Assembly: GCF_050947875.1 (NCBI RefSeq) | Contig: NC_134568.1 | Span: 214,315,678-214,379,677, forward strand | DNA: 64,000 nt | From: Dermacentor variabilis | Lineage: Eukaryota; Arthropoda; Arachnida; Ixodida; Ixodidae | Direction of reading: 5' to 3' | Shown: positions 2,745 to 62,111 of the stretch, piece by piece | How the letters are laid out: each line of letters opens with the position of its first letter | Numbering within the stretch: the stretch's first letter is position 1 | The notes under the pieces: generated by a model | Databases searched by the model: none | What the model was told of the DNA's origin: nothing | What the model saw: the letters and a program-made list of their open reading frames with translations, nothing else | Position numbers and translations under genes: made by a program

Positions 2745-3293
2745 TGTTGAATTCCAATGGCGGAGTCGGGGCAAGTTTTTCTGCTCGTTTCGGAGCAAGT
2801 TTGTTCCAATGACAGAGTGAGGGCGGGAGTAGGGTGTTCCAATGAGAGAGTCGGAGGGGATTCAGTGCGGGAGTCACTCCGTGGAGCAGAAAAAGATGCT
2901 CTGCCAAAAACGGCGGAGTGGACCGGAACTCTGCGTGACGTATTTCCTTTACCACGTAAGTCTGCTGGGAGGCGCCACCGGTCACGACTTGCGAGGAAGC
3001 AAAAGCTGCTGCACGCTTGGGGAGATATCCATTCCGCACTTTTAAAAAAACAGCAGATGAACGGCGCTGAAGAGACAAGTGACCGGTGCGGCAGTGCTGG
3101 GAGCAAACAGCGGAAGGAAATGACAACACGCAAGGTATCCTGGGAACTCGGCGATAGAACTTCCGCTTCCGCCTTGCTCCGGCGGCGCAGGTTGTGTTCC
3201 ACTCGCTGATCTGGAGGTGTTGCTCTACGCCAAAGACGAGCGCTCGCTCGCGGAGTCCGTCGGCTGCTCCGATTCCGCCATTGGAATTCAACA
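2745..3293. mobile_element. Harbinger-like MITE inserted in gypsy RNase H
   Basis: The termini are inverted: TGTTGAATTCCAATGGCGGA on the left is matched by its reverse complement on the right, and the match runs about 28 bp with two mismatches. The target duplication is TAA (2742-2744 and 3294-3296), the TWA type known for PIF/Harbinger. Removing the element plus one TAA rejoins the RNase H frame exactly. Element plus duplication is 552 bp, a multiple of three, so downstream pol stays in the same frame. No transposase is seen in its 549 bp. A second member with the same left end starts at 26573. Confidence 0.88.
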
Positions 3294-5726: not shown

Positions 5727-5815
5727 TTTTTCACTAATCGGCATGGGTTCAGGCTTGTCATGCTACCTCCGGCGTACTACAAGGTAGTGTTCTTCGGCTG
5801 CTACTATTTTTAATA

Positions 5816-6927: not shown

Positions 6928-8165
6928 TATACATTAATGATCTTCCCAATAACTTAGCATTCCAAGTGCGAATCTTTGCTGACGACTGCATTATTTACTG
7001 CCCTGTAACTAGCCCTGATGATCACATCCTGCTTCAAACGATTTTCAGCTTATCTTGGATTGGTGTAACACTTGGTTAATGACTAAATTTATCTAAATTC
7101 AAAGTAATGTCTTTCACTCCGAAACACTCAATCTCTAATTTCCCTTATCACATAAATAATAACCCGATTTTTCCAGCTACTTCATACGAGTACTTGGGAA
7201 TTAATCTTATACCAAGTCTTTCCTGGACCCATCATTCTACTATCAGATTTGCTAATTCTTTAATATCACTGGGGTACTTAGGCTGAAACCTACATAATTC
7301 ACCCTCCAACATCCACAAGCTAGCTGATCAGACGTTTGTTTGCCCGCAGCTAGAATTTGCCTCTCCAATTTGGTCACCTTATCATTATAACCTTATCAGG
7401 TTATTAGAATCAGTTCAAAATGGAGCTGCTAAGTTTATCTCATGTAACTATACCTACAATTCAAGCATCTCATAAATAAAACTTGATATTTCACTTCCGC
7501 CCTTAAGTACTCATCGTGATTTTGCACTCCTAATATTACTTCACAAGCACATTCATGCGGCTAGAAAATCTTGTTTACTGCTTGAAGTCGCACCTTGACA
7601 TCATGCAGATTACATAATCACCTCAGCTTCATGCGTATCTATGGCAACAGTCATGCGTTCAATTGGTTGGTGCCTCTTTCTGCCACTCAGTACGCGATTC
7701 CCGATTTCGTTGTATCTGAAACAAACCCTGATAAGTTCCGCCAGTTCAAGTTCATATTCCACTGCGTAACTTTGACAAATGGCATGATGTGTTTTTCTTT
7801 TGTTTTCCAGTTTTATGCATTTTGCATGCTCTCGTTTTTATTTATGAGCTCATTATTTTGCTTATTATTCTAGTATTTTTTTATCCTATGATATTGGAGT
7901 GGCTACTTTTGTACATTGTTGTCCTGTTTGCTGAACGAACTGTATCTTTTGTCTTTTCTCTAACATGCAACTGTCTCCTATTATTTTTGTGCAGTGCTCT
8001 GTTTGCATATAATGTTGTGTATACATGATTATACTGTCTATTTTTCATGTATATTATGTTTTGTTATAGTATACCCATTATATATACTCATTTAGTCCTT
8101 ACTTCGACACCCCTCTTACCCAATGCCTCATATGAGGCCTGTAAGGAAATTTTTAAATAAATAAA

Positions 8166-21590: not shown

Positions 21591-24500
21591 CTAAAAAAAA
21601 AAAATTACACAGTTCACATTTTCTTGACATGCCCCAAGTACACTTGACAACATAATTGAACAAGAGATGTCATAATGAGGCTTTCAAATGTCATTAAAGG
21701 GACACTAAAGAGAAAAATGATGCCACCTGTATTAGTAAATTACTCTTCTACAATACGAAAAAAGCGACTCTTACCATTAGAAGAGGCTTGGTAAGCCAGA
21801 CATACCACAAAAACGAAAGGCAGATGGCACCGTCAACTTGAAGTTCCTGCACTAGCTCAATGTGACACTATAGATTTTGATGGAGTATGTTTTAAAGGGT
21901 CCCTGAAACATTCTGGACAAATCTTGTAGATGTGTAGCGTACAGCTACAGTAAAGCATTAGTGCCACAATTGAAGTTAAGCATCTCATATTAACAGAGCT
22001 ATGGATGATTACAAGTTACCCTCCTCCCTAGCCATGCTTTTTCTCAACTTGTTCACTGAGTGATCGGGGCTAAAGCTACGCCTTCAATGACTCTGCGTCA
22101 TGATGTGACGACAGGTCATCTGCTTCCGGTTATCTTGGAGCGAGCGTGCAAAGCCTCTCCAACCTCTCTGCTAGCTGCCTGGCCGTCAAATTCCAGAGAG
22201 AGTTACCCAAGCAGTGTGCATTGCAAGGGTTCTGTCGCAGCGCCGAATGCGTCCGGTATTCCAGAAATTACAGGCGAGCTGGGCGCTTTGACGGATGGGT
22301 AGAGGTGCAAACTAAAGCCTCTCTGCTACTACTACTGCTGTGATAAAGTAGCTTTAGCGTAGACACACGTGAGCAGCCTGATTAGCCTGCACAGTCCAGC
22401 CACCTAGTATTGCAGAGCTTAACCAGCCAAACACAGAGCTAATTTTGCTGTAACCAAGTGTAAAACATTTTAAACATTCAAAAAGTGTTCATGATCACGC
22501 TTCTGCCAAAAAATTTACACAAGCAGCAAAATAGAATACACTTTGTTACTGCTATATTAGCTCTGTGTTTGTATGGTTAAGCTCGGCGCCACCAGGTATC
22601 TACATTCTGTAGGCTGCTCACGTTTGTGCCTCCGCCCACCCAGCAAAATTCCCACTCCGCCTCCATTTACTGGACTACACGACACACTAAAACTCTCTAT
22701 CGTGGTACTAATCCAGTGGCGTGACGTGATGGCCACAAATGCGTAGATCCTGGCACCGGTCGAATACAGTCAGCCCAATGCACTGCAGCCACTCTGCTCA
22801 CATGTTGCCTTGCATAGGGACATGATGTAGCAGCTTGACATGTAGATTGCTGAATTTGCAGCCCACATGTAACAAGAGCAATCCATGGTGCTCGCAAGAA
22901 GAAAGCTTGAAACCAACACTGACCATGCAGGTCGTGTCAACACAGAGAATGTTGTCACAAAAGCAGATGATACTTGCTGTGCACCGGAAGTGCTTGGGTG
23001 AAGTGATAAATTGTCAATGTGTGTTACTTTTTTATAGAAACAAATTAACCAACATTCCAACTATCATGAACACCACCTGTTCACCATAAAGTTAGAAAAA
23101 TTATAGATGAAGCGACCTTAGCCAACTGGATAGCTTGCCCAACTGACTTCAATTGGGCTACCTATGTTAATTGGGAGGGGGCAGCTGAAAACTCAGGGGA
23201 GTGGCACCGTTGTGATCAGTAGCGAAAACAGTAGTGAAAACCTTATAATAAATTACACACTTTACGTTGAGCGCTCAAATGTGCCACTTAATGATCAGAA
23301 GGATCTACACTAATGCCTGCAGTATGTTTGTACATCGTCAAAATCATTTCAGGGTCCCTTTGGGCCTAGTTCATTTTTTATCTGAAAAATGGACAACATA
23401 CATTGTATTCTAAATGAGATAAAGATTTAACTTGGCAAGTATTGCAAACTCTTACTTAGCCAACAAGACACAAATTACGCAAAAATACTTTGAAATCCAA
23501 AACGTCCTACTGAGGTGCTGGGGTTTCAATGCAAATGAGAAAAATTTAACATTGACTTTCATTTCTTCTTTAAACATTGAACCTATTGTCGCAAAAGTAT
23601 TAACAATAGAGTTTTCAAAAGAGTACTTTGTCAGTCTAAATTTCACTAGTGTTTCTCTTTAGTGTCCCTTTAATTATGGCGCCTAAAATTAAAATAATAG
23701 TAGTAATGCAAAATGAGCAATAGTTTTGTAGTCATAAAAGCAATTGAAGAGCACATAGTAGTTGCAAATTCAGTCTAAATACAGCACTTGTAGGATCTTA
23801 TAATGAAACCCTGGCTTTCGCATATACACATAAAGGAAATGAACAAGTCTGCTAACATGGATTACACTATTAACATCTATACTGGACTTGATATTAGACC
23901 CTGTCAATGGTAGTGTTTATTTACAAACTTGCATTATTTTGCCTATAATCCTGGATGCCGATAAAAAAGAAATTCAAAGTGAACACGAAATGTCTGTTGT
24001 TTTCTAATATGCACTAAACTTACAGTGCACAGTTTGAAAGCTCAAGGGCCAACCTGGAAGCCTCTTTTAAATCCTGAAACAGCATTTTCTGAGCCCTGAG
24101 AACATGTTCAATTGATTGAGGTGTCTTTTGAAAAATATAATCCTGAAGAAATTAAAAAGAAATACCTGATATGAATGGAAGAATTAGAAGTGCAATATTT
24201 ACTTTCTCTATTCCCCACCTCTTCTGCAGGAGCAGTGCCAATAACAATGCTAGACTCATCAACACTCACTTTCTTTTTTTCAGAGCGCGTATGATAACCT
24301 TTTAAGATGGGCCTCTGACAAAGAACAACAGGATGCATTAACAAGCATTGCTTTCTGTTTTCTGATCGTCCTTGAGAGATTTGGCAGGGTATGCACACAG
24401 ACGATCTTAAAAATTAAGTTAAATTGTGGGTTTTTACGTGCCAAAGCTGCCATATATATGATTATGAGGCATGTCGTAGTGTGGGACTCCAGATTAATCT

Positions 24501-27500
24501 GGACCACCTGGGGTTCTCTAACGTGCACCCAAATTTAAGCACGCGAGCGTTTTCGCATTTTGCCTCAATTGAAATGCGGCTGCCGTGGGTTGATCTAGTG
24601 AGCACTAAGAATTTGTGATGAAAAACAAATTGAAAAAAATTTGGGCTGCTGCAACCTGATGCCAGCTGGGAGTTTTGAAAATGGAAAGGAGGAGCTGTCT
24701 TTACATGCTATTTTTTAGCTCTATGTGTAACATTTATCTGCAAAACCTGTCTGCAATATTCACAGCTCCATGCTCTACCCACACAATGCTTGTTCACTGA
24801 GCTCAAGGTTGTGGTTCAGGACACCTTTAAAACAAGCAGATTCCAACAAACAGCAAATGTGAGGGGAAAAAAAGTTTGCCGACATCGTGCTTGCATTATT
24901 TGCTTTTGTTCTAAAAATAGTTCAAATGCTTTTAGGTTTCAAAGGCATGTATCCAATATTTTTTTTAAAGAATATTTTATATTTTACTGACCCTGTTATC
25001 GTACGAATACAGAGAAATGGGGACGTATTCTTGGATGGACACTTTTGGCGATACGACTTTCAGTGCATGCTTATTGGCTGGTTCAGCAAAACCGGATGAG
25101 CTGACTAGCTGGTTGGGCACTACAACTACATCATGCGAAAGGTATAGTACCACCGAAAGTAATCATCCAAGAATACATCTCATGCTTAAGTAAGCCAATT
25201 AGTAGTTACAGTCAAGTTTACCCCTGGGCTTAGTGCTGGGGCCACTGTTGTTTAATATCTACATTAAGCACCTATCTGGCTTTACTATTCAATCTACAAT
25301 CGTGTATTTAATGCACTTAAAGATGCTATGCATCTAAGGATCTTCCACTCAACCAAAGCTTTCCCGGCTCATCATTTTCACAATACATACACATGGGTCA
25401 GGTCATATTCCAGCATAGCATGGCACTGCACTATGCAATCGTTTATAAACTACAGAAAAGAAAAGGTGTTTTAACTGACTCATGCATAACGTTCTAAGGG
25501 GTCCAGGAACCTTAGACAATATTTGCAAAAAGAAAATGAACAGTGCACTGTAATACACAATAAGAATCACTTACGGCTGTTGCTTAAGGGTGAAATTCTC
25601 CAGTGCTGGCAGCTTCGAATAGCCCTATTACCAAAATGATGAGGGGGGGGGGGGAGGAAGGAAGGCAGTGCTGCATCAGCTCATGCAAATCTTGGCGCCC
25701 AAGAATAGAGTAATGCTACTGATTCTCATAACACAGCAAGGCTGAAGGACCAACTAGAATATCCACACAGAAATGAGCCCGTAAATAGTTAAATTTAACA
25801 ACTGACTTCATATCAAACAGCCCAACTATGTTACAATCAAAATGAAACGTCATGTAAAATAGCAGACTGTACAGAAAAGCTGCCAGAAGCAGGCAGAAAA
25901 GCAATTTACATCCCGAAAACTACCTGGTTCATTCTTTCTAAGCAAAGCCTGTACAAAATGATTACTGTCAATGACACAGCTATTGAATCATACAGTGAAA
26001 GGTGACTTTACATGAAAACAATGAAGGTCTGCCATAACAGCTTTTCTTATTGCTATTTACAAATATGAAATGATGACTGACACAGCCAAGAATAACAGAA
26101 GCCAGCCTGCACCAGGGCCAGGCTCAAAAAGGATGCATTTAGATAATGGCTCAGTACAAACTCCATAAGTACAATTCCGGGAACTAAAAATGCTTCCAAT
26201 TAAATTTAACTAACTTCTGCTAAAACACTCTAATTCGGAACAGTTGGTGCTGTCTGAATGGCTTATAGCAATATAGAGAGTGGTGCAGACATAGCAAGGG
26301 CTAATGCTAACCTGTACTACAACGTAAAAGGAACTGAAAAGACCTTTGCAGGTGCACTATGCTTTGTGCACACTGCTGTCTCAGAGCTAGCAGAAATTCT
26401 TTTTGCTAAAGGCTGACTTGCATGGCACATTTTCCATGGGAATCGAAGATCACGACATCTGTCAGGTAAAGTTCTTAAAGGGACACTAAAGGCAAATATT
26501 AAGTCAATGCACACTGTTAAAATACCACTGCAGAAACCTCACTGCACTTGCTTTGTGCTAAGAAGAGACTTATGTTGAATTCCAATGGCAGAGCCGGAGT
26601 GGGCAGCTGACTCCGTGAATGAGCACTCCACTACGGCATATAGCGATGCTGCCAAATCCGAAATTGGAACAAAAGCCCTGCAGTCAGAGCAAGGGAATGG
26701 CAAGCGGGCGCTCGTCCACACCATGCAACCAGATATGCAGCTTTCCAGCGTCCCTTGCGTGCCAGAGGAGATTATCATTTGCTGTCTCCGCCTGTTGCAA
26801 CAGCTTCTGCATGGTGTATCGCGTCTAAACAGCGCGCACAACACTACGGGGATGTAGAGACGGACCATAATAGAAGATTTCTTTCCTAAAAAGCAGGGTA
26901 GATGCAAATATATATATAAAAAAGAAGAGACAAAAGTAACTTATAAATAAAAAGCACAAACAAAATAACACTTTACAAATCACTGACTTTCGCATTGTGG
27001 CTCTACACATATGGCTGTCAGCATCTGTGAAGAAAAGGACACACTCCCGAAGATAGCACATAGAGGGACAATTGAAACTACGACATACTAGAGGCCTAAT
27101 GAAATGCACAAGGGGATGGGGCAAGTGGATCTGCCCAGAGTAGCAGTGAGTGAGTGAGTGAAAACTTTTATTGAGTCTTTCAAGAGTTTCGCGGTTACGA
27201 GGTCTCCGTCATCTTCATCTTCTTGGCGCTGGCGACTTGAGACTTCTCTTCAGCAAGGGTGGGCCCCTATTCCAAGGCTCCACTGAGTCGTGCTGCATCG
27301 CTCGCGTGCTGCACTAGGGCCCTTTGGGCCGTGAGCACGCTGCTGGTGAGCCGACTCTCCCATTGCTTCGCACTCGGGTGTTCGTGCTTGTGGAATGCTT
27401 TGTTGCGTTCGCACTCCCAGGTGATGTGGTAGAAAGTAGGTGTGGCACCGCACCAAGGGCAGGTGGCCCTGTATTGTGTCGGAAACATCTTATTGAGCAC

Positions 27501-30500
27501 GTGTAAGTTGGGGAAGGAGTTTGTTTGTAGTCTGCGCCAGCTGGTCGCTTCCTCCTTTGAGAGGGCTTTGTGTGGTGGCGGATATCTAAATCTAGTTCCT
27601 CTATGTAAGTTCAGGGTCTCTGCGTATCCCCCCTCGCAAGCCTGTAGGTGGGTCTCCGGGGCATTCGACCGCCCTGCTCGGTGCGCTTCGCCTCGAGCTA
27701 GGCTGTCTGCCCTTTCGTTCCCCCCTATGCCTACGTAACCCAGGATCCAGATTACGTTGTGCCTGGACTTTTCCTTCTCGGCGGAGGTGGCTACGCTGAG
27801 TATTCTGAGGGCAGTTTTGCTGATTCTGCCCCTCGTGTAGTTCCTGCACACCTCTTTTGAGTCCGTCAGTAGAGAGTTTTAGAATAGGGGCCCCAAACCT
27901 TTTGGGGCCCCAAAGAAATAGCGTCGAAGCCACTGCGCATGCGCAAGACGCAAACTGTGTTTGGGTTTTGCGTTGGGAACGCTATTTCACCGATTTAGCG
28001 GGAGCCCAAATAGCGGCCCCAAAAGTTTTGCGTCGGCAAACATGGCGGCACCCATCGAAGCAACGGCTCACCTTAGCACAAAACTGGGTTCGATTCGCGG
28101 TAACGCGTGAAGTTCGCAAGCTAGAAGAAGTGACTGCGGTTATCGCTTTCTCTCAACTAGCGTGTGTTATGAAGATTGACTCATTAGACGCCGCTGATAT
28201 TGAATTCGATTGTGGATTTTATGGCTCGTAGGCCTAACACGGCTAAGCTTGGCTGGTGAAGGCTAGTAAAGTTGGTTTGCTCAAAACTAAGCGCAACTAA
28301 CTGTTTGCTGCTTACAGAATAACCTCTAAATTGTAATTAAACGTGAATACACGCAAGTCAAAATTATTATTCCTATCATAAAATGGTATATTTTATTTAA
28401 TTATTTCTAATAGCTTTTCTTTGACGCCGTAGTGGCGCTGTCAGCGCAAGACGCTATCCGCAAACGTAAAACCCTATTCTAAAGCTCTTCACTCCTATGT
28501 GTCCCAACGCTAACACCCGCAAAGATCTTTGGGGCCCCAAGCTATTGGGGCCCCTATTCTGAAACTCCCTATTATGTTGAGATATCGGCCTGTTCCATAA
28601 CCTTCCGCTGCCGCCAGCGCTACGGCAATCTCCTCGGCCTCCGCTGTGCCAGCGACCTTTGCCGTGGCACACGTGATCGGGTTTCCTTCCTTGTTACCAC
28701 TACCGTCGTGGCCACGCGTTCTCTTCCGTGTGGATATACGGCGGCGTCCGTGTATACTGTATTGTCTAGCTGGGCTAGCGTTCTCGCAACGTATTCGGCC
28801 CTAGCTTTTCGCCTGTTTTCGTGTAGGTTGGGATCCATATTTTTTGGCAGTGGTCCCACATTAATGGTTTTCCTGAGGTGGTGCGGTACGTCCGCGTATC
28901 TGTCTGTCAGTCCGCTCCTATCCCGACCCAACCTCCTCAGGAGCCTTCGTCCCGTAGGGGTGCCTCTGAGTCTCGCGGTTTGCATACCCAGCAGAGCCTC
29001 GGCGAGCTCGCTGAAGGTGTTGCTGATGCCCAGCTGGAGCAACTTCTCGTTCGACGTGTTTCTGGGTAGGTGCAGAGCCGTCTTGTACGCCTTCCTGAGG
29101 ATGGTGTCTGCTTGCTCTCTTTCTGCCTTGGTCGTCACGTGGTACGGCAGGGAGTACGTGACTCGGCTGACAATTAGGCTGTTGACTAGCTTGAGAGTGT
29201 CTTCTTCTTTCATTCCGTATCTCTTTTGGGAGACCCTATTGATCACGCGGCCCACCTGTTCCGCCGCCTTGCTCAGCAGGCTAATGGTGTGGCTGCACTT
29301 TCGGCTGCCTTGTAGTCACATGCCCAGGATCCTAATCATGTTCTTCTCCGGGATGTTCTGTCCCTCGACGGTTACCTCCAGTGTCGCTTGCGTTGGGTGC
29401 TTGCCGACCCTGAGGAGCTCCGACTTCTCCGTGGAGCATCGCAGTCCCCTTTCTCTGGTGTAGTTTTCCACGCAGGTTGCCGCTTCCTGCAGTTTTTCTT
29501 GCTTCTCTCCGAGTGATCCTTGGATGACCCAGACCGTGATGTCGTCGGCGCAAATCGCGTGCTGGATGCCTCGGATCTCCTTAAGTTTTCTTGCTAGGCC
29601 AATCATTGCCACGTTGAAGAGCACGGGCGATATGACAGATCCTTGGGGTGTGCCCTTGCACGGCATGGGGAAGACGTTGCTTCTCAGCTCGCCCAGCCCC
29701 ACCGTCGCCGTTCTGTTGCTCAGGAAGTCCCTGACGTAATCGTGCACTCTCTTCTCGTAGTTGGTGTTGTTGATGCCCTCCATGATGGCCGCGTGGCTCA
29801 CGTTGTCGAAGACCTCCTTTATGTCGAGGGCCATGACGATGTTTTCGCCCGTTTTCGGCATCGTCTCGAGCACTTCCTCCTTGAGTTGGAGCAGCACGTC
29901 TTGCGTTTAGAGGTTGGCTCTGAACCCGTATATGCTATCCGGGTACCATCGCTCGTTTTCCAAATGCGACTGGATTCTTGTGATCAATTTCTCGTACAGC
30001 TTGCCCAGGCACGACGTTACGGATATCGGCCTGAGATTTTCTATTTGGAGTTTCTTCCCTGGCTTCTGAATCATTACGACGACGGCGTGTTTCCACTCCG
30101 CCGGAACTCTTCCTTCTTGCCAGAGCTTGTTGAGGTAGGCCGTCAGTTGGTCGATGGCCTCGTCGCTGACATTTCTGATTAGCGAGTTCCGGATTTTGTC
30201 CGCCCCCGCCGCCGTGTTCTTGGTGGCCGATCTTATCGCCTCGATGACCTCTTCTCTCATGCTGGGTCGGTCCGTGGTAGGGTTTTCTTCGCCGCGGTAT
30301 TCTTCCTTGTAGCTCTCGACCTGGTCTTTGCCGTAGCATTTGACCCGGACTTCCTCAAGGAGTTGTTCGTCCGTGCCTTCGTACTGGTGGACTAGTCAGT
30401 GTATCGACTTGCTGCCTTCTGATTTGTTTTTGCTCGGGTCCATGAGGGCCTTGAGGATCTGCCACGTTCTGGCCGTACTGATGATGCCGTTTAGCGAATT

Positions 30501-33500
30501 GCTAAATTGCTGCCACCCCTGTCTGGCCAGCTGCGTCGCGTACTCCACCGTTTGCTTGATGATGTCTGCAATTTTCTTTTTAAGCTTTCTGTTGAGTTTC
30601 TGTCTCTTCCACCTCTTGGTGAGCCCACGTCACGCCTCCCATAGCTTGAGGAGCTGCTTGTCCACCTCCGGCGTCTGTTCCGTCCTGTCTACTTCCTTCG
30701 TGTATAGGTCTTGGATTCGCCTGAGTTGTTGGCTCCACTCTTCCGCCGAAACGATGCTGCCTTCGAGCTGCTTGCAGTGCGCTCTAAAGGCGTCCCAGTC
30801 CGTCAGCCAAGCCGTGCCAATCTTCCTCCGGACGTTGTCCGCCACCGTGCTAATCCTTATTATGTGATGGTCGCTCCCAAGGTTCTCGAGCAGGTTTTCC
30901 CACTCCGCTTGTTTGGCGCCCCTGATAAAGATCAGGTCGGGACTTGTGTCTGGACTGACGCTATTCCCCTGCCTGGTCGGTTGGTTCTCGTCAGTTAGCA
31001 GCTCGCACCCTACGTTCTCTGCCGCCGTGCAGATGCCGCGCCCCTTTTTGTCCTCGTTAGTATAGCCCCACTCGGACTCTTGGCGTTAAAGTCGCCTGCA
31101 ATGATTAGAGTATTCTGCCCCGCGAACTTTTTCGCCTCCGCAAAGAGCCTAATAAAGGTCCTCTTTGTTTGTCTGGGTGGGCTATATAGATTTACGATGT
31201 AGGTGCTCTTGGCTTTTCTTTTCTTTCTGGGAATTATCTCCGTGATTACGTGCTCTATTTGGTTATCCTCTATCTCTTTGTGTGCTATGGCTACTATTTG
31301 TTTGCTTATGAGGGTCGCGGTGCGGCCGCTCTTTTGACATGTGTAGCCCCTGAGCGTTGGGGTGTTGTTTGTTTCTTGCAACATGATTACATCTGGTGGG
31401 GTTCCTCTGGTGTATATGAATTGCTGTAGGAGGCCCTGCTTGCGCTTGTACCCCCTGCAGTTCCATTGCCAGATTTCTAAGTGTTGTTGTTTCCGTTCTG
31501 CCATGTCTGATTATTGTTGGTTGCGTTGGGGGTTTCTGCGCCGAACCTACGTTCGTTGTATAGTCTGTCTCTGGCGTCGTTGGTGGTTCTTTGCGTATTC
31601 TGATTCTTTATGTAATTTCGGAAACTCTGCTCTTGCAGGGCAAACTTTTGTTGTGTTTGCTGTATTTCGCTTTGCATCTGTTGCATTTGACTTTGCACCT
31701 GGCTCTGTAGATTCATTATGAGACTTCTGATGTCGTCAATGGGGTTCCCCTTTTCGTTGTTTTGTTGTGCCAGCTCCATGGTCTGGGGTGGCGGAGAAGG
31801 TGTGCTAGTCGGTGTATAACCTGCCCTCATTTCTTGTTTTTCCCTGATTAAGTCGTTTAGCTGTTTCTTTAATTGTCTCGATTCCTCACGACTTTGCTCG
31901 AGTTCGCGCCTGGGACTTTTGATTTCTTCAATTAGTTGTATGTCTTGTGTTGTTTGTGTGTTGTTCGAGTGCGGTGCAAAAAGCGATTTGGGAGGGCTGT
32001 CTCCCCAGCTCACCTTAACTCCTCCGCCGCTCTTCTTTTGCTGCTGTTTCTGCTGCAGCTGCTTCTTGTCGGTGTTGCCCAGGGGTCGGTATGACTCGTC
32101 CCGGACGGACCCTGGGCTTCGGCTGCGGCTCCGCGATCCGCTTCGGCCCGGGCCCTGGCTTTCGTCCCGGAACCATCGTGGTCTTCTTCCTCGGCTTCGT
32201 CTTCTGCTGCGCCGTAGCTGCTGCTGGGTGCCCCATCGCAGCTCGCTCGCTGACTTGAGGCGTTGTTTGCAGTCTCTAGTACCCACCGCGTGGTCGCCGC
32301 CGCATAGCAGGCACTTGGGCGTGCACTGGTGCACCTCCTCCGGGTTTTGGCAGCCGCGCTGTCTGCAGGTCCTGGTTTCCGGGTTCGGGCAGACGTCCAT
32401 TCGGTGCCCTTGTTGGCTGCAGGCGTAGCACACCTGCCTCGTCGGCCGATACGAGTAGCACCACATATCCCCACCGTAGTACAGCACCTGTTTCGGGAGG
32501 ATGGGTCCGTCGAAGGTGATGACGGCCGTGCTGGATCTCCCAAGCATTCTGGCTGCAAGGATCTTCACGCCTTGCTTGCGGACTCTGAGGTTGGTGTTGA
32601 GTTCTTCCGGCGAGGTCGCCGGGTCCACGCCGTGGATGAGCCCGCGCAACGTGCCTTCTGGCGTCGCCACGTGAGCGTTGACGGCGTAGTTCTTGCCCCC
32701 CAAGCTCAGCTGCGTGATGCACCTAATCGTCTGGGCCGCCTCTTCGTTGTCGGTGCTGCTGATGATGATATTGGATGCGTTGCGCAGTCGGATGATGAGG
32801 TCTTCCGCCTTACATCCTTGCTCGGTGGCCGCGACCACCGCTCGCGCCACCTGGTGTGTCTGCAGGCTTTTAACAGCCAGTCCCCTCGGCCGAAGGACTA
32901 TCTTAAGGCCGTCTCTGGGGAGCGGTGGCAGTCTCCTCCTCGGCGCTCCTCCTCTCTCTCTCTTCTTCTCCGGAGCAGTTGGCGCACCATCTGTGACCTT
33001 CGCCGCGCCTGGGGAATTTCCATTCCCCGGCGTTCCCGCCAAAACTTGCTGCTTGTTATCGCTGCGTTGGCGTCTTTTCTGCCTTCTTGACATGGCGATT
33101 TCCCAATCTGCGTCGGTTCCGCCACTGTTGCTTACTTGTGAGCTTTGTGTCGATGGGGTGCTGCTCCCTAGGGCTTGGTGGCTGCCTACCGCCGCGGGTC
33201 CGCCTCGGACTAGCTGCTGCTCGGGAGCCGCCTCGGTGGTGTCTTGGAGGTCTTCCTACATGATTTCTTGCGATTCGGCCGAAAATCTTGTCGGGCCTGT
33301 CGCTGAGGGTCGGTCGTAGATGGGGTTGCTTGCTCGGGACATCGCTCCGGGTCTTCTCTACCTCGGGCCGAGGCCGGGGAGGCCGCGGAGCCCCGCTACT
33401 GCTCTAGGTCTTGTTAGGCTTACCGCCCGGTCGGCCACATGGCAAATTCAAATGCCGATAAAATCCAAAATATTGGACCCACCAGCTTGAACTTGGGGTC

Positions 33501-36500
33501 CTCGTGGTCCTCTTCACTTCCGGCGTCGATCCCAGCCAAAATTTTGGTGGTCCAGTAGGGATGAACGGGTCAAAAAGCCCAAAAACTATGGAAAACTAGC
33601 ACCATCAGCCGATTGTTTGTCTCTTGGCAGGAAGGTGAAACATGACTTCAAAGGCTTGCTCATAAGTGGTGGCTCCAGCATAGCTATCAGAATCATTGCT
33701 AAACGAATCTAAATTTGTAGTGTCACATTCAGAGCTGTCGCTCTCAAGCAGTGCAGGGAAGAATGCGCGACGCAATATAGCGGTGTACATTGCATCTGTC
33801 AATACCGGCGTCCCGGCATAATAGAGACATGTTGGGAAAAAACAGGAAATGTGTCAGCTGAGCCGCGAGTGCTCTCAATCTGCCATTGGAACACTCAATT
33901 GGTGCTCCCGATCTGTAATTGGAACAGTGTTGTTCCAAAAAGAGCAAAAAATGCTGCTCCAGAAGTGCTCCAAATCTGCCATTGGAATTTGCTATTAGTT
34001 TAAGAGGAAATCGTGTCTGAAGGGTCCGCATTCCTTTAGAGAAACTCAAATCACCTGCCCCTGAGCAGAAAGTGGTAACATTGCATACGCCATTGTCATC
34101 AGTGAGTAAAACAGCGCCCAACAGAGGGCACTACAATTTCTTTCCACAACACACAAACACGCGGCCATAGAAAATTCTTCCTCATTAGACAGTTTCAAAA
34201 AGCAGTTGCTACCATTTATCAATACCTAGTACTCTGAATTTTTATCATGTGTTTGTTGCTTTATATTGTAAAGGATTGATGTTATAACTGTGTTTGTTTT
34301 TCATTCTTCTAAAATTTTGTCTATCTGTATTTTCTTATGTATTGCTGTTGTACTTGGCATTTACCGCTTTTATAACTTCATGACAGAAGGTCCCCATGCA
34401 GCCTTGTGCTCTGGGGCCTCCTTCCGTAAATTTATCTGTGTAATTCTTTTATTCGTGAAATAAACGCAGATTGATAGAGAAACCATGCCAAGACAGTACA
34501 CGTATGTAGATGTAGTTATGTGCAGGGCAGCACATATATAACAGGAATATCTGATGTGCTTATTTGTACTAAAATAATCTGGCATTCTGATGCCACAACT
34601 CATGTGATGATGATGTGATCAATAATCTGATGCCACAACATCATGTGACATGGCATTCTCTGCGACTTGCAGTTCATGCGAGTTTTGCAAGCCAGCAAAA
34701 CCAGCACAGCATTATGCGATAACGAAACTACTGAAACTCGAAAGCATGAGTGACGCAGAGTCAAGCAAAAACGAGACCTTTCGACTGTCCGCGTTGTTGC
34801 CAAAAGTAACGTGAATGAGTTTTTCCCCTAAAATCGAATAGAACTGAACAAGCAGTACTTCTTCCGTTTTATAATGCAATGTAATGATCTTTTTTTATTA
34901 CAAGTCGTTCAGTGCTAGTGACGGAACTGTAATGAGGCGTGCCTATGTTATCGGGCTAGTACTTGAATGTACCGGGGGCCGGTCACGACGCGTGTCTTGC
35001 ATTTACTTCAATTTTTTATTACTAAAGCTGTGTTTGCGATAATATCAACATCTTATACATTCTCAAGAATGAATCTATCACTTTAATTTGACTTAATACT
35101 TGCCTTTAGTGTCCCTTTAATGCCTGCCCGCACGTTTTCATGTGGGTCACGGCTTTCGAAAAAAGAATGATGCGAAAAATTTGCTAACGAATTAGATTTC
35201 TAACAGCACACAATTCATATGAATTCATCAATTGGATGCGAGGCATGCTACAGCAGGCTACCCGTGTTTCATATCTAGCAGGGTAACAAATGACCTGCAA
35301 GTATCTTTTCGATACAATCAAAACTATAACCATTCGTGATATTTCTGCACAGAAAATTAATTGCATTCTCACTATAGTGTTCTCTTTTTGCTAAGATTAT
35401 CTTCATGGTAAGAGGCAACCACAGCAGAGTACCATGCCAAGGCCATGGCTGTTACTGTTGGATTATGGCCATATATATGACCATTGGAGAGACCAAGGCA
35501 TGCACAGCTCAGTTTCTAGTGCAAGAAATGTTTCATGCAGAGCAGGCTTAACAGACAATAGGCAATGAAAGAGAAACTAGCCAAACTGTAACAAAAAAGA
35601 AATGTGACTACACACAGGCCATATCATGTCGTTGGGTGTTCCCAGCAAATCAATGATCAGTTCCAGTTGGTGAATCTCGGAGCGCCCTGGTAGCAGGGGC
35701 TTATGTAACAGCAACTCCCCCAGGACACAGCCAGCAGCCCTTGTAACATGGAAGCATACAAGTTAGATACATGGCTTGGTTTATTCTATCACCAGGATGG
35801 CTTGTTTTTAACATTATACCCTACCATATGTCAATGGCTGTGGTCTGGGTCTTGGCTTGCAGCAGCAGTTCTGGTGCCCGATACCTGAGAAAATAGGTGT
35901 CCAAATTATAGCATGCACAGCAGGCAACAGAGTGATGACAACAAAGCTAGTAGTGCAGGTTATCCATACTATGAGGTACAAATAATCAATCCACACATAT
36001 ACTTCCATCTGCTATAACAGACAACTGCCAGCTTTCTTGACTCCTGTGAGGCTACAATGCTCCTTCAAATGTTGGCTTCATTGAGACAATACTAGATTAA
36101 TTTCATGAGTTTCACTACACCAACACTGCTTCAAAGGTTGTTGGTCCTTAGCAGGCTAAAGGGCAACTCCAGTAAGAACTGCACAGTTTTTTTTACTGCG
36201 GCAAAACAGCTTAGCCCTTGATATGAAGAGGCAAGGAAGTGAGGATAAAGATCGTACAACAGGAGCACAGTTCAGGAGACTCACACCACCACTTTCCCCA
36301 ACGCTATTGCAAGAAAACCATATAGCAGAAGACAATTACAGCACAAATGCTAATTTCATCATCATCATCATGAACCTATTTTAAAGGGACACAAAAGGCA
36401 AATATTAAGTCAAGCTAAAGTGATAGATTAGTGCTCGAGAATCTCTAAGGCGTCAATATTATCACAAACAGAGCCTTAATAATAGAGAAATTGAGGTCTA

Positions 36501-39500
36501 TGCAGGACATGATTAGAGACTCCCCCGGGACATTCAAGTACTTGCCCGATAACGAAAGCACTCCTCGGTTAAATTCCGTCACTAGTACTCAACCATTCGT
36601 TGCAAAAAAAAAAAAAAAAAAAGGACCACATCCTTGTATTGTATTATAAGACGAAATAAAATGCTACTTCTCCAGTTCTATTTCATGTTTGGAAAAAACT
36701 CATTGAAATTACCCTTGACAACGATGCGGGCAGTCGAAAGGTTTCATTTTTGTTCGACTCCGCGCCGCCCACGTTTCACTAGTTTCGTTATTGCATAGTG
36801 CTACGCTGCTTTTGTTGGCTCGTGAAACTCGCACAAACTGCAAGTAGCAGAGGACTCAACTTCCATGTGATGTCATGGGACGTCCCAACGGTCTACACCA
36901 CTTGACCAAACACCAGCTGCAGCGGCGAATCCACAGCACTGTCTGCTCGGTACTGCCGTCTGTCAGGCGCCGTTTTACTCACTGATGGCAGCAAAGGGTG
37001 GTATGGTGTATGCAACGTCATCACTCCCCCGGTTGGGTGGCGGGAGATTTGAATTTCAAAAAAGGCATTTGGACTCTTCAGATGCAATTTTCTCGTTAAC
37101 TAAGTCTTTTCTTGGCACGAGACAAGCGTTGAGAGGTTTCTGGAATGGCATTTAAACAGTCCACATCAACTTAGTATTTGCCTTTAGTGTCCCTTTAAGT
37201 CCACTGTAGGATGAAGGCCTCTCCCTCCAATATCCAATTACCCCTGTGCTGCGCCAACTGGTTCCAACTTGCGCCTGCGAATTTTTTAATTTCATCACCC
37301 CACCTACTCTTTTTCCATCCTTGACTGCGTTTCACTTCTCTGGGCACCTATTCTGTAACCAGGGTGTCTACCAAGTTGACATTTCCAAATTCCCTGAGTT
37401 TTCCAGGTTTTCCCTGAGCACCTTCGCAATATTCCCTGAATGAGCCAGAACTTTGATGTCAAGACAGGCTGACACCATGTTGCCCGATGCTGTCACTCTC
37501 TAGTAAGCATGTTGAAACAACAAAATGACTTAATCCAGTTTGAATACTAAGGAGTAATATCTGTTTATTTTAAGGGGGGACATGGCAATGAAAAAAATTT
37601 TTTTTTACTTATGGGAATAAATTGACGAAATTTGGCATGCAGGTGTGCTTTGTTATGCTGACATCATAACTGAAATCAGTTTTGAGCTATCTATTATAGT
37701 TCTTGAGTTAGAACACTTGACATCCTCAATTGGTCATCCCTCAAATTAATTAATTACACATAAGTTTGTCAAGATTTTCATACCAGCATGTTCAAAAAAG
37801 ACCATTATGTGCAATAAAGCTATTGGTTTATTTTTTAAATGCCGAAATAAGCACAAAAGCTTTTTTTGAGCTTTTCTGTGCATGTTGTCTTACTAACGAC
37901 CTTTGCAAAAAACTCATTATAAATTTTTGTATGAGGTGCAGATGAAAATGGACAGCTCTATTGCACTGATCAATGTTTCACGATCAAAGTGCGAAAGACA
38001 GAATGATTCTGTCTTCATTCATTGTGAAATTGCACTGGGATTACTGAAAGCAACTGCACAAAAAGTGAAAGCTGAGCAAACAGGGCTCAAAGTTTTACTT
38101 GCTGGAAACATCAAAATATTTACTTTGAGCACCTAAAACCCGCCTGCAATGTAGTCCTTTGGCAGCGAGGACACATTTTCTTTACATTTTGAGGTAATTT
38201 TTCGCTTCTTTACAGCAGTTTCATGTGCCTTCGTTGCCTTTTTGATAAGTCGTGCATCCTTTTCAGCAGCCCGCCGCAGTGAACACGATCCTGGACTGTA
38301 TCCCAGTTGCAACGTAATTGTTTGCAGTGCTCTTTCACAGCCAGCATTGAAACGGCAAACTGCATCTGTCACAGCACTTTCAACACTCAGGAGTGAAGCA
38401 AACTGATTTTTTGATTGGAGTGACCAAATGACATTGTTCAGTGACTTGATGGCATTCTGCGTTTTGCCTTGCTGGCATCTTTCAAGGAGTTCTCTTGCAG
38501 ATAGACGTTTATATAAAGGCAGGAGTGCTGCTCGAACATGTGCAGGAATCTGCAGCTTGTGCGCAGGGGCTGGTTGACCTGAGGCCACCGCAGAATTAAA
38601 CTTTCACCAAGAGTTCACGCCAGTGGGACAGTGCTCATGATGCGGCTCATCATCGGTAGATGTTACATGGTGAAAAGTAGCCATGATGGCCTTTTCCATA
38701 GCAGGCACATCATTTGGGTTACTTTTTATGGCTAAGCCATAATAGTTTGTGAGTTTTTTAATTAAACCCTGCGTTAGGCAGCCCTTTCCACTCATGCTGA
38801 GCTCACGGTCCTTGCTCTTGCTTTTCTCAACAAGGTTGCGCAAAGCAGTTCCCATTCTTTTCTTCACGTGATTCACACACTCTTGTTTGTGTGTGGGTAT
38901 GAAACCATACACTTTCTCTTCACTGAGGGCAATATAAGTGCGGCTATCCCCATCACAAAGGACATTTGTGTAACGGAGCTGTTGTTTCTGAAGAGACCGC
39001 TGAAACATGGTTTTTGCCGCAATTATTTCCATTTGCCCTGCACTTGCCTCGGTGTTTTTTTGACATTGCGGTCGGTGTTCTTCATGCCACTCTGAATAAA
39101 TACTGTCTCCAGGCTTGGGGCCAAGAGAAAGTTCATGGCAATAATAGGAGAGGACACAGTGGTCCAAGACAAGGCCAGAATATAATTCAATAACACAGCC
39201 AACACCAATGTGACTTGTGTGGCCCCTTGTCATCCAAGTGCCATAATAGATCACATCAACGTTGCCTGGGGCGCATCCAAGTTCCCTGTAGATCTCGCGC
39301 ACCTTCTGTGCACTTTCGGACTCTATTGTCATGGCTGCTGAGGCAGTGGCAGGGTGACTGTGCCTACGGTGCAGCCTTGCATAGCATTTGTGATGCAGTC
39401 CTTGATGAGAAATGTCCATGTGGGAGAAAACATCATTCAGTGTGGCTTCCTTTTTGCCTACTGACTGCACAGCTCTCAGTACACGAACATTCACCTCAAA

Positions 39501-42500
39501 AGGGTTGATCTTCTGAGTGCCAGCACATCTTGCAGATGACCACTTTTTGCTTATCACCCCACAGTCGTCACACAGCAGTTCCACTTTAGTCGCAAGCCCA
39601 AGACATAGCCCAGTTTCAACACGAATTGGCGTTTTCCCGCACTGAGTGCAGCTTGCTGCACGTTAGCAGCTCGTTTAAGAGTGCTTTATGTACAATGAAA
39701 AATGATGACTTGGGAACCACGTCGTCAGCACACTCTCCTTCTTTCAAAAGCTGAAATTTCCTCTTTGTTGCAGAGGTAGATGACAGCGCATTCAAAACAT
39801 CCGCTCTTGTCTCCGCTTGTTTCGCAATCTCTTCATTCGTGAGAATTGGAGCTGAAATTCGCAGCTGAATATTTGACGCGACGTCCGCTCTCGCCGATGT
39901 CACATTGCCGTCACGACCACGCGCGGGTGCGCCTTCACCAGCGCACGCGGGCGTGTCGTCACCACAGCCCACGGTCGCGTTGTCATCGGCGCACATGGTC
40001 GCGTGATCACCACCGCACCCAGTCGCGTCGTCAACACAGCCCACGGTCGCCTCGTCAGCACAGCCCACGGTCGCGTCGTCAACACAGCCCACGGTCACGT
40101 CGTCACCAGCACACCCGGTCGCGTTGTCAGCACTGCACGCAGACGCGCTTTCCCGATCATCCGCGTGCGCCGGTCGCACCTTGTCGACACGGGCAGCGGC
40201 ATCCGTTTCTGCGGGTAGTTTTCGCCTTCTGGTCCACGCCTTTCGTCGTTTTCCGTACTCGGAACTTGCCTCCTTTGGGGCTCATCAGGGAACACACGCG
40301 TTAGGGTAGTTCGGCTGCCACGATGGTCAAGCCATAAGAGTTTCTCACTATAACACCTAGAGAGAAATCTGGCGCCACCGTCCATGGGAGTTTCTTAAGG
40401 GGGCACCGTGCCGTCATGGGAATGACGGTATATGTGTCTGCGAGGCTTGTGTTGGCTGGTGTTGTAAGAGGCTTCGTCTAAAACGTGGATATGGCTACGC
40501 AAATAACGCGTTCTCAAAGTAAAATCTTCATAAAATGTTTCCATTCACTCATATTACATCTTTACTCACCCACGATGCATGACCAAGCGAAGAAAAGCAA
40601 GAACAGACGACCAGCTGTTTCAAAGCGAGCGCGAACCTTGTCATCTGTCCTCCAACTTTAGCGGCCCGCTGATACTTTTTACGTAACATGTAGTCGTACA
40701 CACAATAACAAGTTCTCATAGTTAAACAAAACATGTTTTCGCGTAATAATAAAGCTAAAACAGCTTTTCACGTGCTGTTCTAGTAGAAAATGAATCATTG
40801 TGACAGGCGAAACGGTATTTGCCAAGCGCGTCTTCAAGGTGTCCTGTCTCTGCGAGAACGATGCCAATCCGAATCCACAATATACAGTAGAACCCCGCTG
40901 TTACGTTCCTCACTGCTGTGTTTTCCCGGCTGCTACGTCGCTTTCATCCGGTCCCGGCATAGCTTCCATAGGATCCAATGTATAAGGAACCCCGCTGTTA
41001 CGTAGTAGCTGTGAAAACGTTCCCGCATGATGCGTCGCAACCCGAACCCGCCTGGGCTAAAGTAGGCAACGCGCTTCAACCGCCATTTTGGCTTTTGACG
41101 AGTTTTGACTGGGCTTGGCTATTGAAGTGGCTGCAAGAAGCCGCACGCCAGTTCGAGAGGCCGCCACTAGGTGGCCATTCGTGAAAAATGCTCTCACTAT
41201 CATCACTGTGATTACGGTCACCGCATGGTTTTTGTTGGGCGGGTCGACACACGGAGGAAGGAAACTCAGGAGAGGCCCTGACGTCACTCTTAGGGAGGCT
41301 ATAGCTAAAGAGAAGCCGGAAGTTGGCGTTGCTCTGCCTATCGGGCCAGTTCTCCTCTCTTGTTTACATTTCTCGCGAAACCATGCAGTGCTAGCAGGGC
41401 TGCGTGCAACCGGGCTGCTCGGACGCGCGTGCTCCGCAGCAATACTAAACAAACGTTAGCACGTTAGCATGATTACGCCAAAGAGGGCAAAATTTCCCGC
41501 GAGTATTCATTCGTCCATTGCCGTTGCCTGGCGTGGTGACGACGAGGAGCACGAGCCGCATGATGCCGGGGGGTTGCCAAATCCTAGCTTTGGAGAAGCC
41601 GTCGCGGCTCTGGACCTCCTCCGCAGGTACGTCGCACCTCACAGCGACGCTGACAGCAATGCGGCCTTCCAGGCTATTGAGAAACGTGTGGTGATTTCTA
41701 GCGAGCGAAAGAAATGGCAAGCCACCATTCTAGACTCTTTTTAAGTCCTAAGTGCACCCTGTGGAAATAAATTGTCTATAGTTGAAACTGCACTTTTCTC
41801 ATTCATTTTCGGAGCTTTCCTCACTGTTGCGTTTTCCCGGCTGTTACGTTTTTTTTCCTCGGTCCGGTGAAAAACGTATGAACGGGGTTCCACTGTACCG
41901 GCATTCCCATGCATACCACAGCGCAGCAGCGCCAGATTTCCCTCTAGGTAATGTAGTGAGAAACTCTATGGCCGAACTATGGTGGCTAGAGGGGGAGGTG
42001 TCAGCATCGGCTGGGCTGCGCCGCGTATGGCGGTGCGGCATTTTTCCATGACAGCGACAGGTGGCACGCTCGTCGTCTCCGAGATGCCTAGCGTGATGTG
42101 TTTGAGCAATCTCTCCGGCTCCAAGCGCGCGTCGTGAAGTCTGTGGTGAAGTTAGCTTCGCCTTCCCCGCTTTTGTTTGCTTGTCATAAGGAGTTCTGAG
42201 TAGCCTTCTTGACCCACGTTCTGGAAAAATTTGGTCAGTATGCAGAGTCAGCTGGATGATCTCCTGGATGTGGGCCACCTAAATGAAGTTCACGAGATGG
42301 TAAAGCATTGTGATGCAATGCCAGATCATCGTGAAATGGTGGGATCAAATAGCGACTCTCGCATACCCTACTAAGTTAGCGGGTATGTTACCAGGAAAAT
42401 GCTAATGAGAACAAAGCGCAAAGAGTGTTCTCTAGCAAGCAAAAGTCTTCAAGCAAAAGACTCACGCTTGCTTCCGGTAGAGTTGTGCCTTACCAACCAC

Positions 42501-45500
42501 ATGGATAGAGGTGGCCTACTTTACCCATCTCAGGCACTAACAGACTTAGTTCCTGCGATGGAAGATGCCTTCATGCATTGTTTCAGCTTTAAGTTGAAGG
42601 CTGACAGCATCATGGGCCTTATTTCCTGCCTAGTCAATAAATAAGCTGGATATGGTTGGCTGTGTGCAGCATAGCGTAGAAATCACCAACCAAGTGATAC
42701 AGTTTTTTGTCATCACGAGGTTGCACATCCTTGACACAGGAGAGAATGCATCGAAGCAAGGGAAGCGAGAAAAAATGAAGTACCTCAAGTTGAGGCGCAC
42801 AACATAACTGCATAACTGCAAAGTTTATACCAGCAAGACCAACATAAAGCGTTTGTATATGTAAAACAGGAATTGTTCACATCACATTGTATGCCCAGAA
42901 ATATCTGCATATCTGAACAGAATTTCCCACCCGACAAATTATTGTTTGCACTGCACATTGTTCACCGTTTCTGGGTATATACCTCCATTATATATTTGAT
43001 TTGCACTCCATTTCGTGTCATATTGTTTGTTTGAGAGCTAACGACCATGTACTATATAGAGTCGTGTGTATTATTTTATTAACAATAAATATTCTTTAAG
43101 GCATTTTTGGCATTATTTGAGCGGTACTAAATATGCGTACTTAGTTCTTTGCAGGTTTCTAATATTGGAAACCAAATTTCCCTTAACGCTCTCATTATGC
43201 TGAGTTTTGACCATTGGTGCCTACAGTTCTACCTGTCATTGCAAAATTAAATAAACTTGAAATAATCATGGTTCACTCGAGTGGCCCGTTTCAACTGAGG
43301 CGCGCACTTCAATGAGGCACGCACCAACCAGTAGACGATTAGGACAAGCGCCTGTAGCTCAAGACACTAATAAAGTCACGCCAGACAGAACTGCATACGG
43401 CACCCCATAATAGTCTCTTAAAATGTTAAAGCGGCACTGGCAAACTGCAAACAACCGCCTACTGCGGAAGCTTTCTGCTTGGTGCAATTATGAGTTTCAC
43501 AAGTGTTGCACTGAGCGCGAAGCTAAAGCGCGGCGATAAAATGTCCAAAATTTAGTACATAGTATGTTAGGCCAGCTGCAGTGATAAAGTCGCCTAGCCT
43601 TTAAAATGATTTTCCGATGCGCGTATTGCGCCCCAAGAAGGCGCGGAGCGAGAAAGCACTTCACAGCGGAACCAAATAACCGCAGCAGACCTTAGCCAGC
43701 GTACGGGAGGCATCTCGGAGCCAACAGCAGCGCCGCCGCATCGTCCTGAAAAAATGCTGCCTCTCCGGCGCTCCGATGCCGACACCTCCCCATCTAGCCA
43801 CCATAGCCGAGCTATCCGCGGTGCGACGGCGCCTTCCGAGGCCCGATTTTTTCGCAATTTTTGATAACGGCGCTCTACGAAAGTGCTGTTTTCTCAATTT
43901 CTACCGCGTATTTTGTTATAATATTTCACCACAAGGTAAAAGAAGGTCCGAGGATTGCGAAAAAAAATAAATAGGAAAATAGAAAATTTTGACCATTTCG
44001 ACCACTTCAATTGCCGCATCCTCTCTTAAAAGGAAAACAGAAGGAAGGAATTAGTAAAATGCACAGTGAAAAAAATGGTAAAACACATTCCAAATTGAGT
44101 CGAATATTTTCAAATACGAATGAAAAGGAGATGCATACATAAGTAAATATTTTTGAATATGAGCTATTTCTATCAACTGATAGCAAGCTCATCGGTATGA
44201 GGCCTGAATGTTGTCCCAACTAAGATTCTCTCTCAACAGCTGGGAAGTCAACCTCAACTGTCCTGACATACTCTCAGCCCGTACACAACATCTCAGTGTT
44301 TGGTTTCACTGCTTTAAAGAGTTTATTTCGGTTTGGATGAGGGACAACTGCATCTCGGTGTCAGCCAACACTTTCTTTTTTGAGCTCAAGCTCCTTGAAA
44401 GAGGCAGCGACACACTTCCTTCCTCATTCATCCTTCAATGCGTCGGTCCTTTCTGTTCTCATCCTCCTTCTGCCACGCATTCACCCCATGGATCGTTTGA
44501 AGCACCCTCTTGGTCAGTTGTATAGTCAACGTCCAATTTTTCAGACTCCCTAGGGTCTACAAAAACATCAGAAAAATCGGGCAGTCCTAAAAAAATGAAA
44601 GCATGTCTTTAACTGCCCTTAAGAGCTAAAATTGCCACAGGCACGTCCGAAAAAGCTCTTAAGGCCTGCCAGTACACTTATTAGGCATATCAGTACTCGT
44701 ACTGTGACAGAAGACGGGGGTGCACACGTGTATAATTAAGGAATACATACTGTGTACTATGACAATTGTCCCTTCCCACATTTGTTATGCTTCACCGCGT
44801 AACACTGCTGTTCTGAGTTTCGAAGACTGGCATTACACAACGCGCTGCGAGCTTCAAAGTCAATCACGAGGTTTACAAAGGCGGAGTCGGTGCCATTGCT
44901 GACAGCGGCAAATTCTTTCAATGAAAAACATGGCACTGCAGGGCAAGGAGCTTAATAGCGAATGTAGAAGCAGCTAGGCCTAATGTTGCCGCGGTGGTGG
45001 ATACGGCTGCTAGCGGATCTGCGTTCGAGTGCCGGTTTGAGGCGGCGAGATAATCAAAATGGCGGCGGTGGTGGCTTTGATTAACGCCATTTCAGACCTG
45101 CAGTCAGGGCAATATGCATTGACTATATCGAGTACGTGGTGGTGCCGCAAAGCCGTGCAAATTATCGGGCATGTTTGAAAAATCGGTTAAGTGGTCTGGC
45201 AATACCTTGTGCCGATGACACGGCGTCAATGACGATTCGTTGCGATTCCTCTGTTACTGGAGCCAGCATTAACATGACTTTCGTTCCCTTTCAATAAAGT
45301 TACAGCTAGTTTTACCTGATAGAAGCACAAATTCCAAGTTTTCCCTGTGTATTTCCAGACTATTCAAATTCCCTGAGAATGCCCGGTTTTCCCAGTTGGT
45401 AGACACCCTGGTAACCCTAACGGTCCACCGCTTATCTAACCTTTAGAATGAATGTTAAAATCTAGCTGTAGTTACGACTACTGTAGTAATCTAGACATTA

Positions 45501-61455: not shown

Positions 61456-62111
61456 TTAAAGAGGCCCTGCAAGGTCATTTTTGGATCATCATATTTGTTA
61501 TAGATCTATTCTCAGCATGTCGTAGAACACAGAGCAAAAAGAATTGAGAAAATTGACCCGCCCAAACGGAAGTTATTGGTCAGAGAAAATTCAAATACAA
61601 GGAAAATGAGAGCTACCCTCCACTCAAATTATCGCGGCTTTAAGATGCAGGTTTCACTTTCCGATAACGTCTTATGGTGCCTTAGTGAGAGTTGGCATGC
61701 CCAGGTTGGCAAGCCTGCTCAGTGGTGGCGTTCCATGGCCTCCATGATCAGTTGGCGCATGGTTTAATATCAGAGGCCATTGCTTCACATTTATGGTTAC
61801 AACAGCTCCTGTGAGCTGGCTGTTGGCGCGCCAAAGTGCTCGGCATGTGTTGCATCGTTCTTGTGGTTGCAGCACCTAGCCCGTGGCTCTGTGATACATA
61901 AAATGGCTGTAAAATGCAGTGACGTAGGTTTTTTCGCAGTACTCACAATATTGTGCGAACTTAAATCACACATTACATTTTTAACCAATCGTTATAGCGA
62001 CACACTTGTTCGTCACATCCTGTCTACGAAGTACACAAAAGTGCCACATTGAGGCGATGACACGTGTGCTGTTCAGCAAGCGTTCCCTGGCACATTGCAG
62101 GGCCCCTTTAA
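61456..62111. mobile_element. TTAA-flanked MITE (AGRGGCCCTGCAA ends)
   Basis: Left TTAAAGAGGCCCTGCAAGG; right inverted CATTGCAGGGCCCCTTTAA. TTAA on both sides, 656 bp in all. The family differs from the AGGGACACTAAAG MITEs but shares TTAA and an AGRGG start. In the downstream intron of the SDR39U1-like gene. Confidence 0.82.

What the first reader, a model, noticed from the sequence alone, without database searches (positions are those of the whole stretch)
26475..35120. Four-level transposon nest in CDK10 intron 10, each level with a readable empty site
A TTAA MITE was opened at TTA by a Harbinger-like element. An I-type LINE sits inside that element, and a TA MITE sits inside the LINE's RNase H. 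Three of the four insertion sites are supported by restoration: the outer MITE matches the intact copy at 36381-37198 across the TTA, and the RNase H reads through when the TA MITE is removed. This gives a relative order of activity TTAA MITE, Harbinger-like, I-LINE, TA MITE. A CR1 fragment also entered the outer MITE.
Basis: seen in the sequence. Interest (0 to 1): 0.75.

Follow-up and report, generated by a model that had tools for sequence, protein, structure and literature searches.

The report
Nested tick transposons in CDK10 intron
One intron of a tick gene has been filled by mobile elements that landed inside one another; two of the four landings can be undone on paper and checked, and the whole is an ordinary kind of genomic nest.

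Summary
The nest is real. Rejoining 26475-26572 to 33998-35120 restores a TTAA mini-element that aligns without a gap across the join with the reverse complement of 36381-37198. Among the joins scanned, the best score falls on exactly the offsets a shared TTA allows. The inner TTA element has a second copy at 2745-3293 with TAA on both sides. The LINE's RNase H opens when the TA element is taken out; 12 of 12 relatives covering the site (4 named, all ticks) are uninterrupted there. They fit removal of 703 bp better than 700.

The title overclaims. The LINE has no detectable target duplication and an unplaced 5' end. The outermost level has TTAA flanks only. 'Harbinger-like' rests on a 3-bp duplication without any transposase trace, and 'CR1' is tentative. 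The outer element is better called Kolobok/T2-like (TTAA plus AGGGA).

The nest makes up 8,646 of 9,991 bp of the CDK10 intron. A smaller apparent nest lies at 21694-23673. The window's own genome could not be searched and no other tick genome was on hand, so a composite repeat is not excluded. Ordinary nested transposons; interest low.

The parts
25625..35615 (-). CDK10 intron (intron 10 if one N-terminal coding exon lies upstream), 9,991 bp
   Evidence: tblastn exon map and GT/AG borders
26475..26572 (+). Left arm of the outer Kolobok/T2-like MITE, including the TTAA at 26475-26478 and one TTA copy at 26570-26572
33998..35120 (+). Right arm of the outer MITE, ending in TTAA at 35117-35120 (contains the extra piece at 34135-34654); the other TTA copy is 33995-33997
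26573..27140 (+). Left arm of the TTA-duplicating inverted-repeat element (inner border towards the LINE approximate)
   Evidence: TIR and second copy
33441..33994 (+). Right arm of the TTA element; outer end shown, inner border to the LINE 5' end not fixed
   Evidence: composition drop
27141..33440 (-). Non-LTR retrotransposon (LINE) with ORF1, EN, RT and RNase H; TGAG-repeat tail at low end; 5' end near 33440 or beyond, unresolved; interrupted by the TA MITE
   Evidence: ORFs, Pfam RVT_1 and Exo_endo_phos, RT relatives; no target duplication
27872..28569 (+). TA MITE inside the RNase H; TA at 27870-27871 and 28570-28571 by its inverted ends, or 28573-28574 by the protein relatives
34135..34654 (+). 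Extra piece inside the outer MITE, possibly a LINE 3' end; absent from the intact copy
   Evidence: alignment break, frame and 8-bp repeat
36381..37198 (-). Intact copy of the outer MITE in the next CDK10 intron, opposite orientation; serves as the empty-site reference
2745..3293 (+). Second copy of the TTA-element family, TAA on both sides (2742-2744, 3294-3296)

Best explanation
An ordinary stepwise nest of independent transposon insertions in a tick CDK10 intron. A Kolobok/T2-like MITE inserted at TTAA; an inverted-repeat element that duplicates TTA cut into it; a long RNase H-bearing LINE then landed in that element; and a TA-duplicating MITE landed in the LINE's RNase H. A further piece, perhaps a LINE 3' end, entered the outer MITE at an unknown time. 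Shown: the identity of the outer MITE, the TTA junction, the TA insertion in coding sequence. Inferred: that the LINE entered the TTA element as its own event, and the mechanisms (cut-and-paste for the three DNA elements, target-primed reverse transcription for the LINE), from general knowledge of such families.
For: Rejoined outer arms match the intact copy far above shuffles; the TTA join is the best of the joins scanned, tied over exactly 3 bases; a second copy of the TTA element has its own TAA pair; LINE domains EN and RT above Pfam cut-offs or close to them, RNase H below, RT 78% identical to an Amblyomma americanum protein; RNase H opens over the TA site and 12 of 12 covering relatives of 13 hits are uninterrupted there, 10 of the 13 carrying a precomputed Pfam RNase H tag.
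Against: No target duplication for the LINE. The interior of the TTA element is not matched by its second copy. The joined 119-aa RNase H stretch matches no Pfam family by itself. The TA join leaves one codon that no covering relative has, and the one-TA join ranks only 24th of 728. The junctions could not be searched in the genome.
Confidence: 0.85

Rival explanations
1. Part of the nest, such as the TTA element with the LINE in it, or the outer MITE with all it holds, spread as one composite repeat, so that the levels do not date from insertions at this locus.
For: Not excluded: the own-genome search did not complete (15 attempts) and only one window is on hand.
Against: In this window the outer MITE and the TTA element each occur alone (36381-37198 and 2745-3293), and a search of the window with the LINE found no other copy. 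An outer element of 8.6 kb moved by MITE ends would be unusual (inference).
Confidence: 0.05
2. The LINE sits not directly in the TTA element but in a further, unrecognised element or sequence between the two arms, so there are more levels than four.
For: Only about 122 bp at the left and 68 bp near the right end match the second copy; the arm interiors are unaccounted for and the LINE ends lack a duplication.
Against: Members of one family often differ in their interior, so the mismatch is weak evidence; no further ends were recognised in the arms.
Confidence: 0.2
3. The structure is an assembly or chance artefact.
For: None seen; single assembly only.
Against: Alignment score more than twice the shuffle maximum; exact 3-base and 2-base ties at the two restorable junctions.
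Confidence: 0.02

Closest known systems
T2-MITE / Kolobok superfamily non-autonomous elements (PMC6004289, passages read)
   Same: TTAA target duplication and ends beginning AGGRR (here AGGGA), non-coding, terminal inverted repeats.
   Different: Described in Xenopus; no transposase or autonomous relative was found here.
PIF/Harbinger elements (recalled)
   Same: 3-bp TWA target duplication, inverted ends.
   Different: No transposase or Myb-like protein detected in the arms; ends TGTTGAATTCC are not the ends I recall for Harbinger.
RNase H-bearing non-LTR retrotransposons (I group, recalled) of ticks
   Same: ORF1, endonuclease, reverse transcriptase, RNase H; close relatives in Amblyomma and Dermacentor.
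   Different: Clade not resolved; this copy is broken by four stops, two frameshifts and the TA MITE.
Tc1/mariner-type TA MITEs (recalled)
   Same: TA duplication and inverted ends.
   Different: No transposase, no other copy in the window.
TinT, Transpositions in Transpositions (PMC3014933, passages read)
   Same: Uses element-in-element insertions to order activity.
   Different: TinT uses thousands of nests and a likelihood model; here there is one nest.

Membership tests
Kolobok/T2 MITE (outer element) | TTAA on both sides | tested here: met
   Nest copy and intact copy
Kolobok/T2 MITE (outer element) | Ends begin AGGRR | tested here: met
   AGGGA at both ends of both copies; motif from PMC6004289
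Kolobok/T2 MITE (outer element) | Mobilised by a Kolobok (THAP/DDE) transposase | not testable with these tools
   No autonomous relative could be sought in the genome
PIF/Harbinger (TTA element) | 3-bp TWA target duplication | tested here: met
   TTA in the nest, TAA at the second copy
PIF/Harbinger (TTA element) | Harbinger transposase or Myb-like gene | tested here: inconclusive
   0 of 12 six-frame arm translations hit a transposase; 3 stray sub-cut-off hits, one to DMTF1_N at E 0.22; right-arm peptide search gave nothing at E 0.001; a non-autonomous copy would lack it
RNase H-bearing LINE | AP-type endonuclease and RT | tested here: met
   Exo_endo_phos E 1.4e-11, RVT_1 E 6.5e-21
RNase H-bearing LINE | RNase H domain | tested here: met
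   Weak in Pfam itself (E 0.023, below cut-off); 10 of 13 relatives of the joined stretch carry PF00075
RNase H-bearing LINE | Target duplication at insertion | tested here: not met
   None found; 5' end not fixed, so the test is limited
I clade proper | RT groups with I in a tree | not tested
   No named reference set on hand
TA MITE (Tc1/mariner-like) | TA duplication and inverted ends | tested here: met
   2-base tie at the best join
CR1 (extra piece) | CR1 3' UTR or ORF2 C-terminus | not tested
   Only a suggestive reading frame, judged from recall

The most novel reading that the evidence does not exclude
The TTA element is not a Harbinger but belongs to an undescribed TWA-targeting inverted-repeat family of ticks, with ends TGTTGAATTCCAATGGC and repeated subterminal TTCCAATG-type motifs that could be transposase binding sites.
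Probability: 0.08. Interest if true: 0.4.

Novelty: new member of a known kind. Interest (0 to 1): 0.2.

Why it matters
It is a clean example in which two nested insertions can be undone and checked, one against a sister copy and one against protein relatives, and it suggests how one tick intron could have grown from about 1.3 kb to 10 kb. As evidence on family activity it is a single data point. Intronic nested repeat elements in a tick are already mentioned in print (PMC3160391, passages).

Tried and rejected
Composite-repeat test in the window's own genome: not answered in 15 attempts. An exact 22-base piece of the outer MITE end was sought in the prokaryote and viral collections: 0 matches each, as expected for a tick repeat. 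Transposase in the arms of the TTA element: none. LINE target duplication: none. Rfam on 25500-37300: nothing; tRNA scan of the window with the bacterial code: nothing. piggyBac for the outer MITE was judged less likely because its ends begin AGGG (piggyBac ends recalled, not tested). The likeness between the LINE's stop-codon region at 27260-27282 and the TA element's end (17 of 23, none in 3 shuffles) was not explained and not used.

Full report
What is there. The exon ending in the codons for DMIWP (down to 35616) and the exon beginning GYSKLP (from 25624) have GT and AG at their borders, so the intron is 25625-35615, 9,991 bp. The nest, 26475-35120 (8,646 bp), is 86.5% of it. That the organism is a tick rests on protein relatives: of 13 hits for the RNase H, the 4 named ones are from Amblyomma sculptum and three Dermacentor species, and the best of 93 hits for the RT is an Amblyomma americanum protein at 78% identity.

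Outer level. The ends 26475-26507 and 35088-35120 are 97% inverted repeats, with TTAA at both edges. The rejoined arms align with the reverse complement of 36381-37198 with score 747.5 against a maximum of 350 in 30 mononucleotide shuffles. Of the bases aligned in the two stretches compared, 542 of 690 are identical (183 of 235 and 359 of 455), K2P 0.26. The termini, AGGGA after TTAA, match the T2/Kolobok signature given in PMC6004289 (passages). There is no empty site for this outermost insertion; only the TTAA pair supports it.

TTA level. I scanned 80 left ends by 70 right ends for the join that best restores the intact copy (pairs differing by more than 30 bases in length from the reference were dropped; the number kept was not printed). 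The four best joins tie at 26569/33995 through 26572/33998, the freedom that a 3-base TTA duplication gives; the next best score is 190 against 193. The element's ends are TGTTGAATTCCAATGGCAGA at 26573 and an inverted copy with 4 mismatches in 20 at 33975-33994. A blind scan for TWA pairs with at most 3 mismatches in 18 therefore missed this copy but found the second one, 2745-3293, whose ends are identical over 18 bases with TAA at both edges. The second copy matches the nest copy over 122 bp at the left (70%) and 68 bp near the right end (74%), not in the interior. No transposase appears in 12 six-frame translations of the arms; there were 3 stray hits below the Pfam cut-offs. Harbinger is thus a guess from the duplication alone.

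LINE level. On the minus strand, from the TGAG-repeat tail near 27141 to about 33440 or beyond, lie ORF1 (592 aa, stop to stop), an endonuclease, an RT and an RNase H. ORF2 carries in-frame stops at 30630, 30396, 29907 and 29316. One frameshift lies near 31.08 kb, where the endonuclease profile continues in another frame, and another near 28.7 kb (by eye), besides the TA element. No flanking duplication was found, either exact from 8 bases up or with one or two mismatches, and the 5' end is not fixed. That the LINE lies between the two ends of the TTA element is shown; that it inserted into that element as such is inferred.

TA level. The inverted ends are 44 nt, 80% complementary. With one TA kept, the RNase H region becomes a single frame of 277 aa to the ORF2 stop, its first part lying before the frameshift. 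The search with 236 aa of this peptide gave 13 relatives. Of these, 12 cover the site, and all 12 are uninterrupted there and lack one isoleucine that the join leaves. The simplest account is a TAT tandem duplication at the right edge (inference). A hmmscan of the joined 119-aa stretch matched no Pfam family, so the support comes from the relatives, 10 of 13 of which bear a precomputed RNase H tag.

Extra piece. Between 34134 and 34655 the outer MITE carries 520 bp where the intact copy has 94 bases that do not align well. One frame reads AAIENSSSLDSFKKQLLPFINT before a stop, which resembles a LINE C-terminus as I recall it. An 8-bp repeat, CCACAACA at 34144 and 34633, may be its duplication, but by my arithmetic about 0.24 such matches are expected by chance in the stretches compared. 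CR1 itself was not tested.

How ordinary it is. A scan for TTAA pairs with inverted 18-mers found 7 pairs in the window and none in each of three block shuffles; the 7 include a cross-pair between the two MITE copies. One of them, 21694-23673, in the next CDK10 intron, appears to hold another element with AGGGNCCCTGAAA ends, though only its left side keeps TTAA. Intronic nested repeat elements in a tick are mentioned in PMC3160391 (passages), and an arthropod survey lists Kolobok, Harbinger and TcMar among the widespread superfamilies (PMC6327564, passages). Ordering insertions by nesting is an established method (PMC3014933, passages). Five literature searches did not list this nest; that says little.

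Verdict. Of the four insertion sites, two are supported by restoration, one by TTAA flanks only and one by position only. The order is that of events at this locus. Whether any part of it is a composite repeat remains open, because the window's own genome could not be searched.

Noticed in passing
21694-23673: Another TTAA-flanked element (ends AGGGACACTAAAGAGAAA, perfect over 18) in the next CDK10 intron; it appears to hold an inner element with AGGGNCCCTGAAA ends near 21892 and 23365 (only the left keeps TTAA) and a short inverted pair at 22419-22580, so a second, smaller nest.
   Followed up: partly
28570-28575: TATTAT at the right edge of the TA MITE leaves one extra codon in the restored RNase H compared with all 12 covering relatives; tandem TAT duplication, older than or later than the insertion.
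   Followed up: yes
27260-27282: The LINE's own ORF2 stop region resembles the TA MITE's end (17 of 23, sharing GAATAGGGGCCC), with none in 3 shuffles; chance or a shared origin, unexplained.
   Followed up: no
33857-33987: Repeated subterminal motifs (GTGCTC..AATCTGCCATTGGAA) near the right end of the TTA element, similar motifs also in its second copy at 2745-3293; perhaps transposase binding sites.
   Followed up: partly
5814-6929: TA-flanked (or TTAA-flanked) inverted-repeat pair with ends CGGTTAAACCTCGATATAACGA, about 1.1 kb.
   Followed up: no
41978-43805: TA-flanked inverted pair, ends TGGTGGCTAGAGGGGGAGGTGT (1 mismatch in 22), about 1.8 kb, in another CDK10 intron.
   Followed up: no
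61456-62111: Weaker TTAA pair with ends AGAGGCCCTGCAAGGTCA and AGGGGCCCTGCAATGTGC, possibly another Kolobok-like MITE.
   Followed up: no
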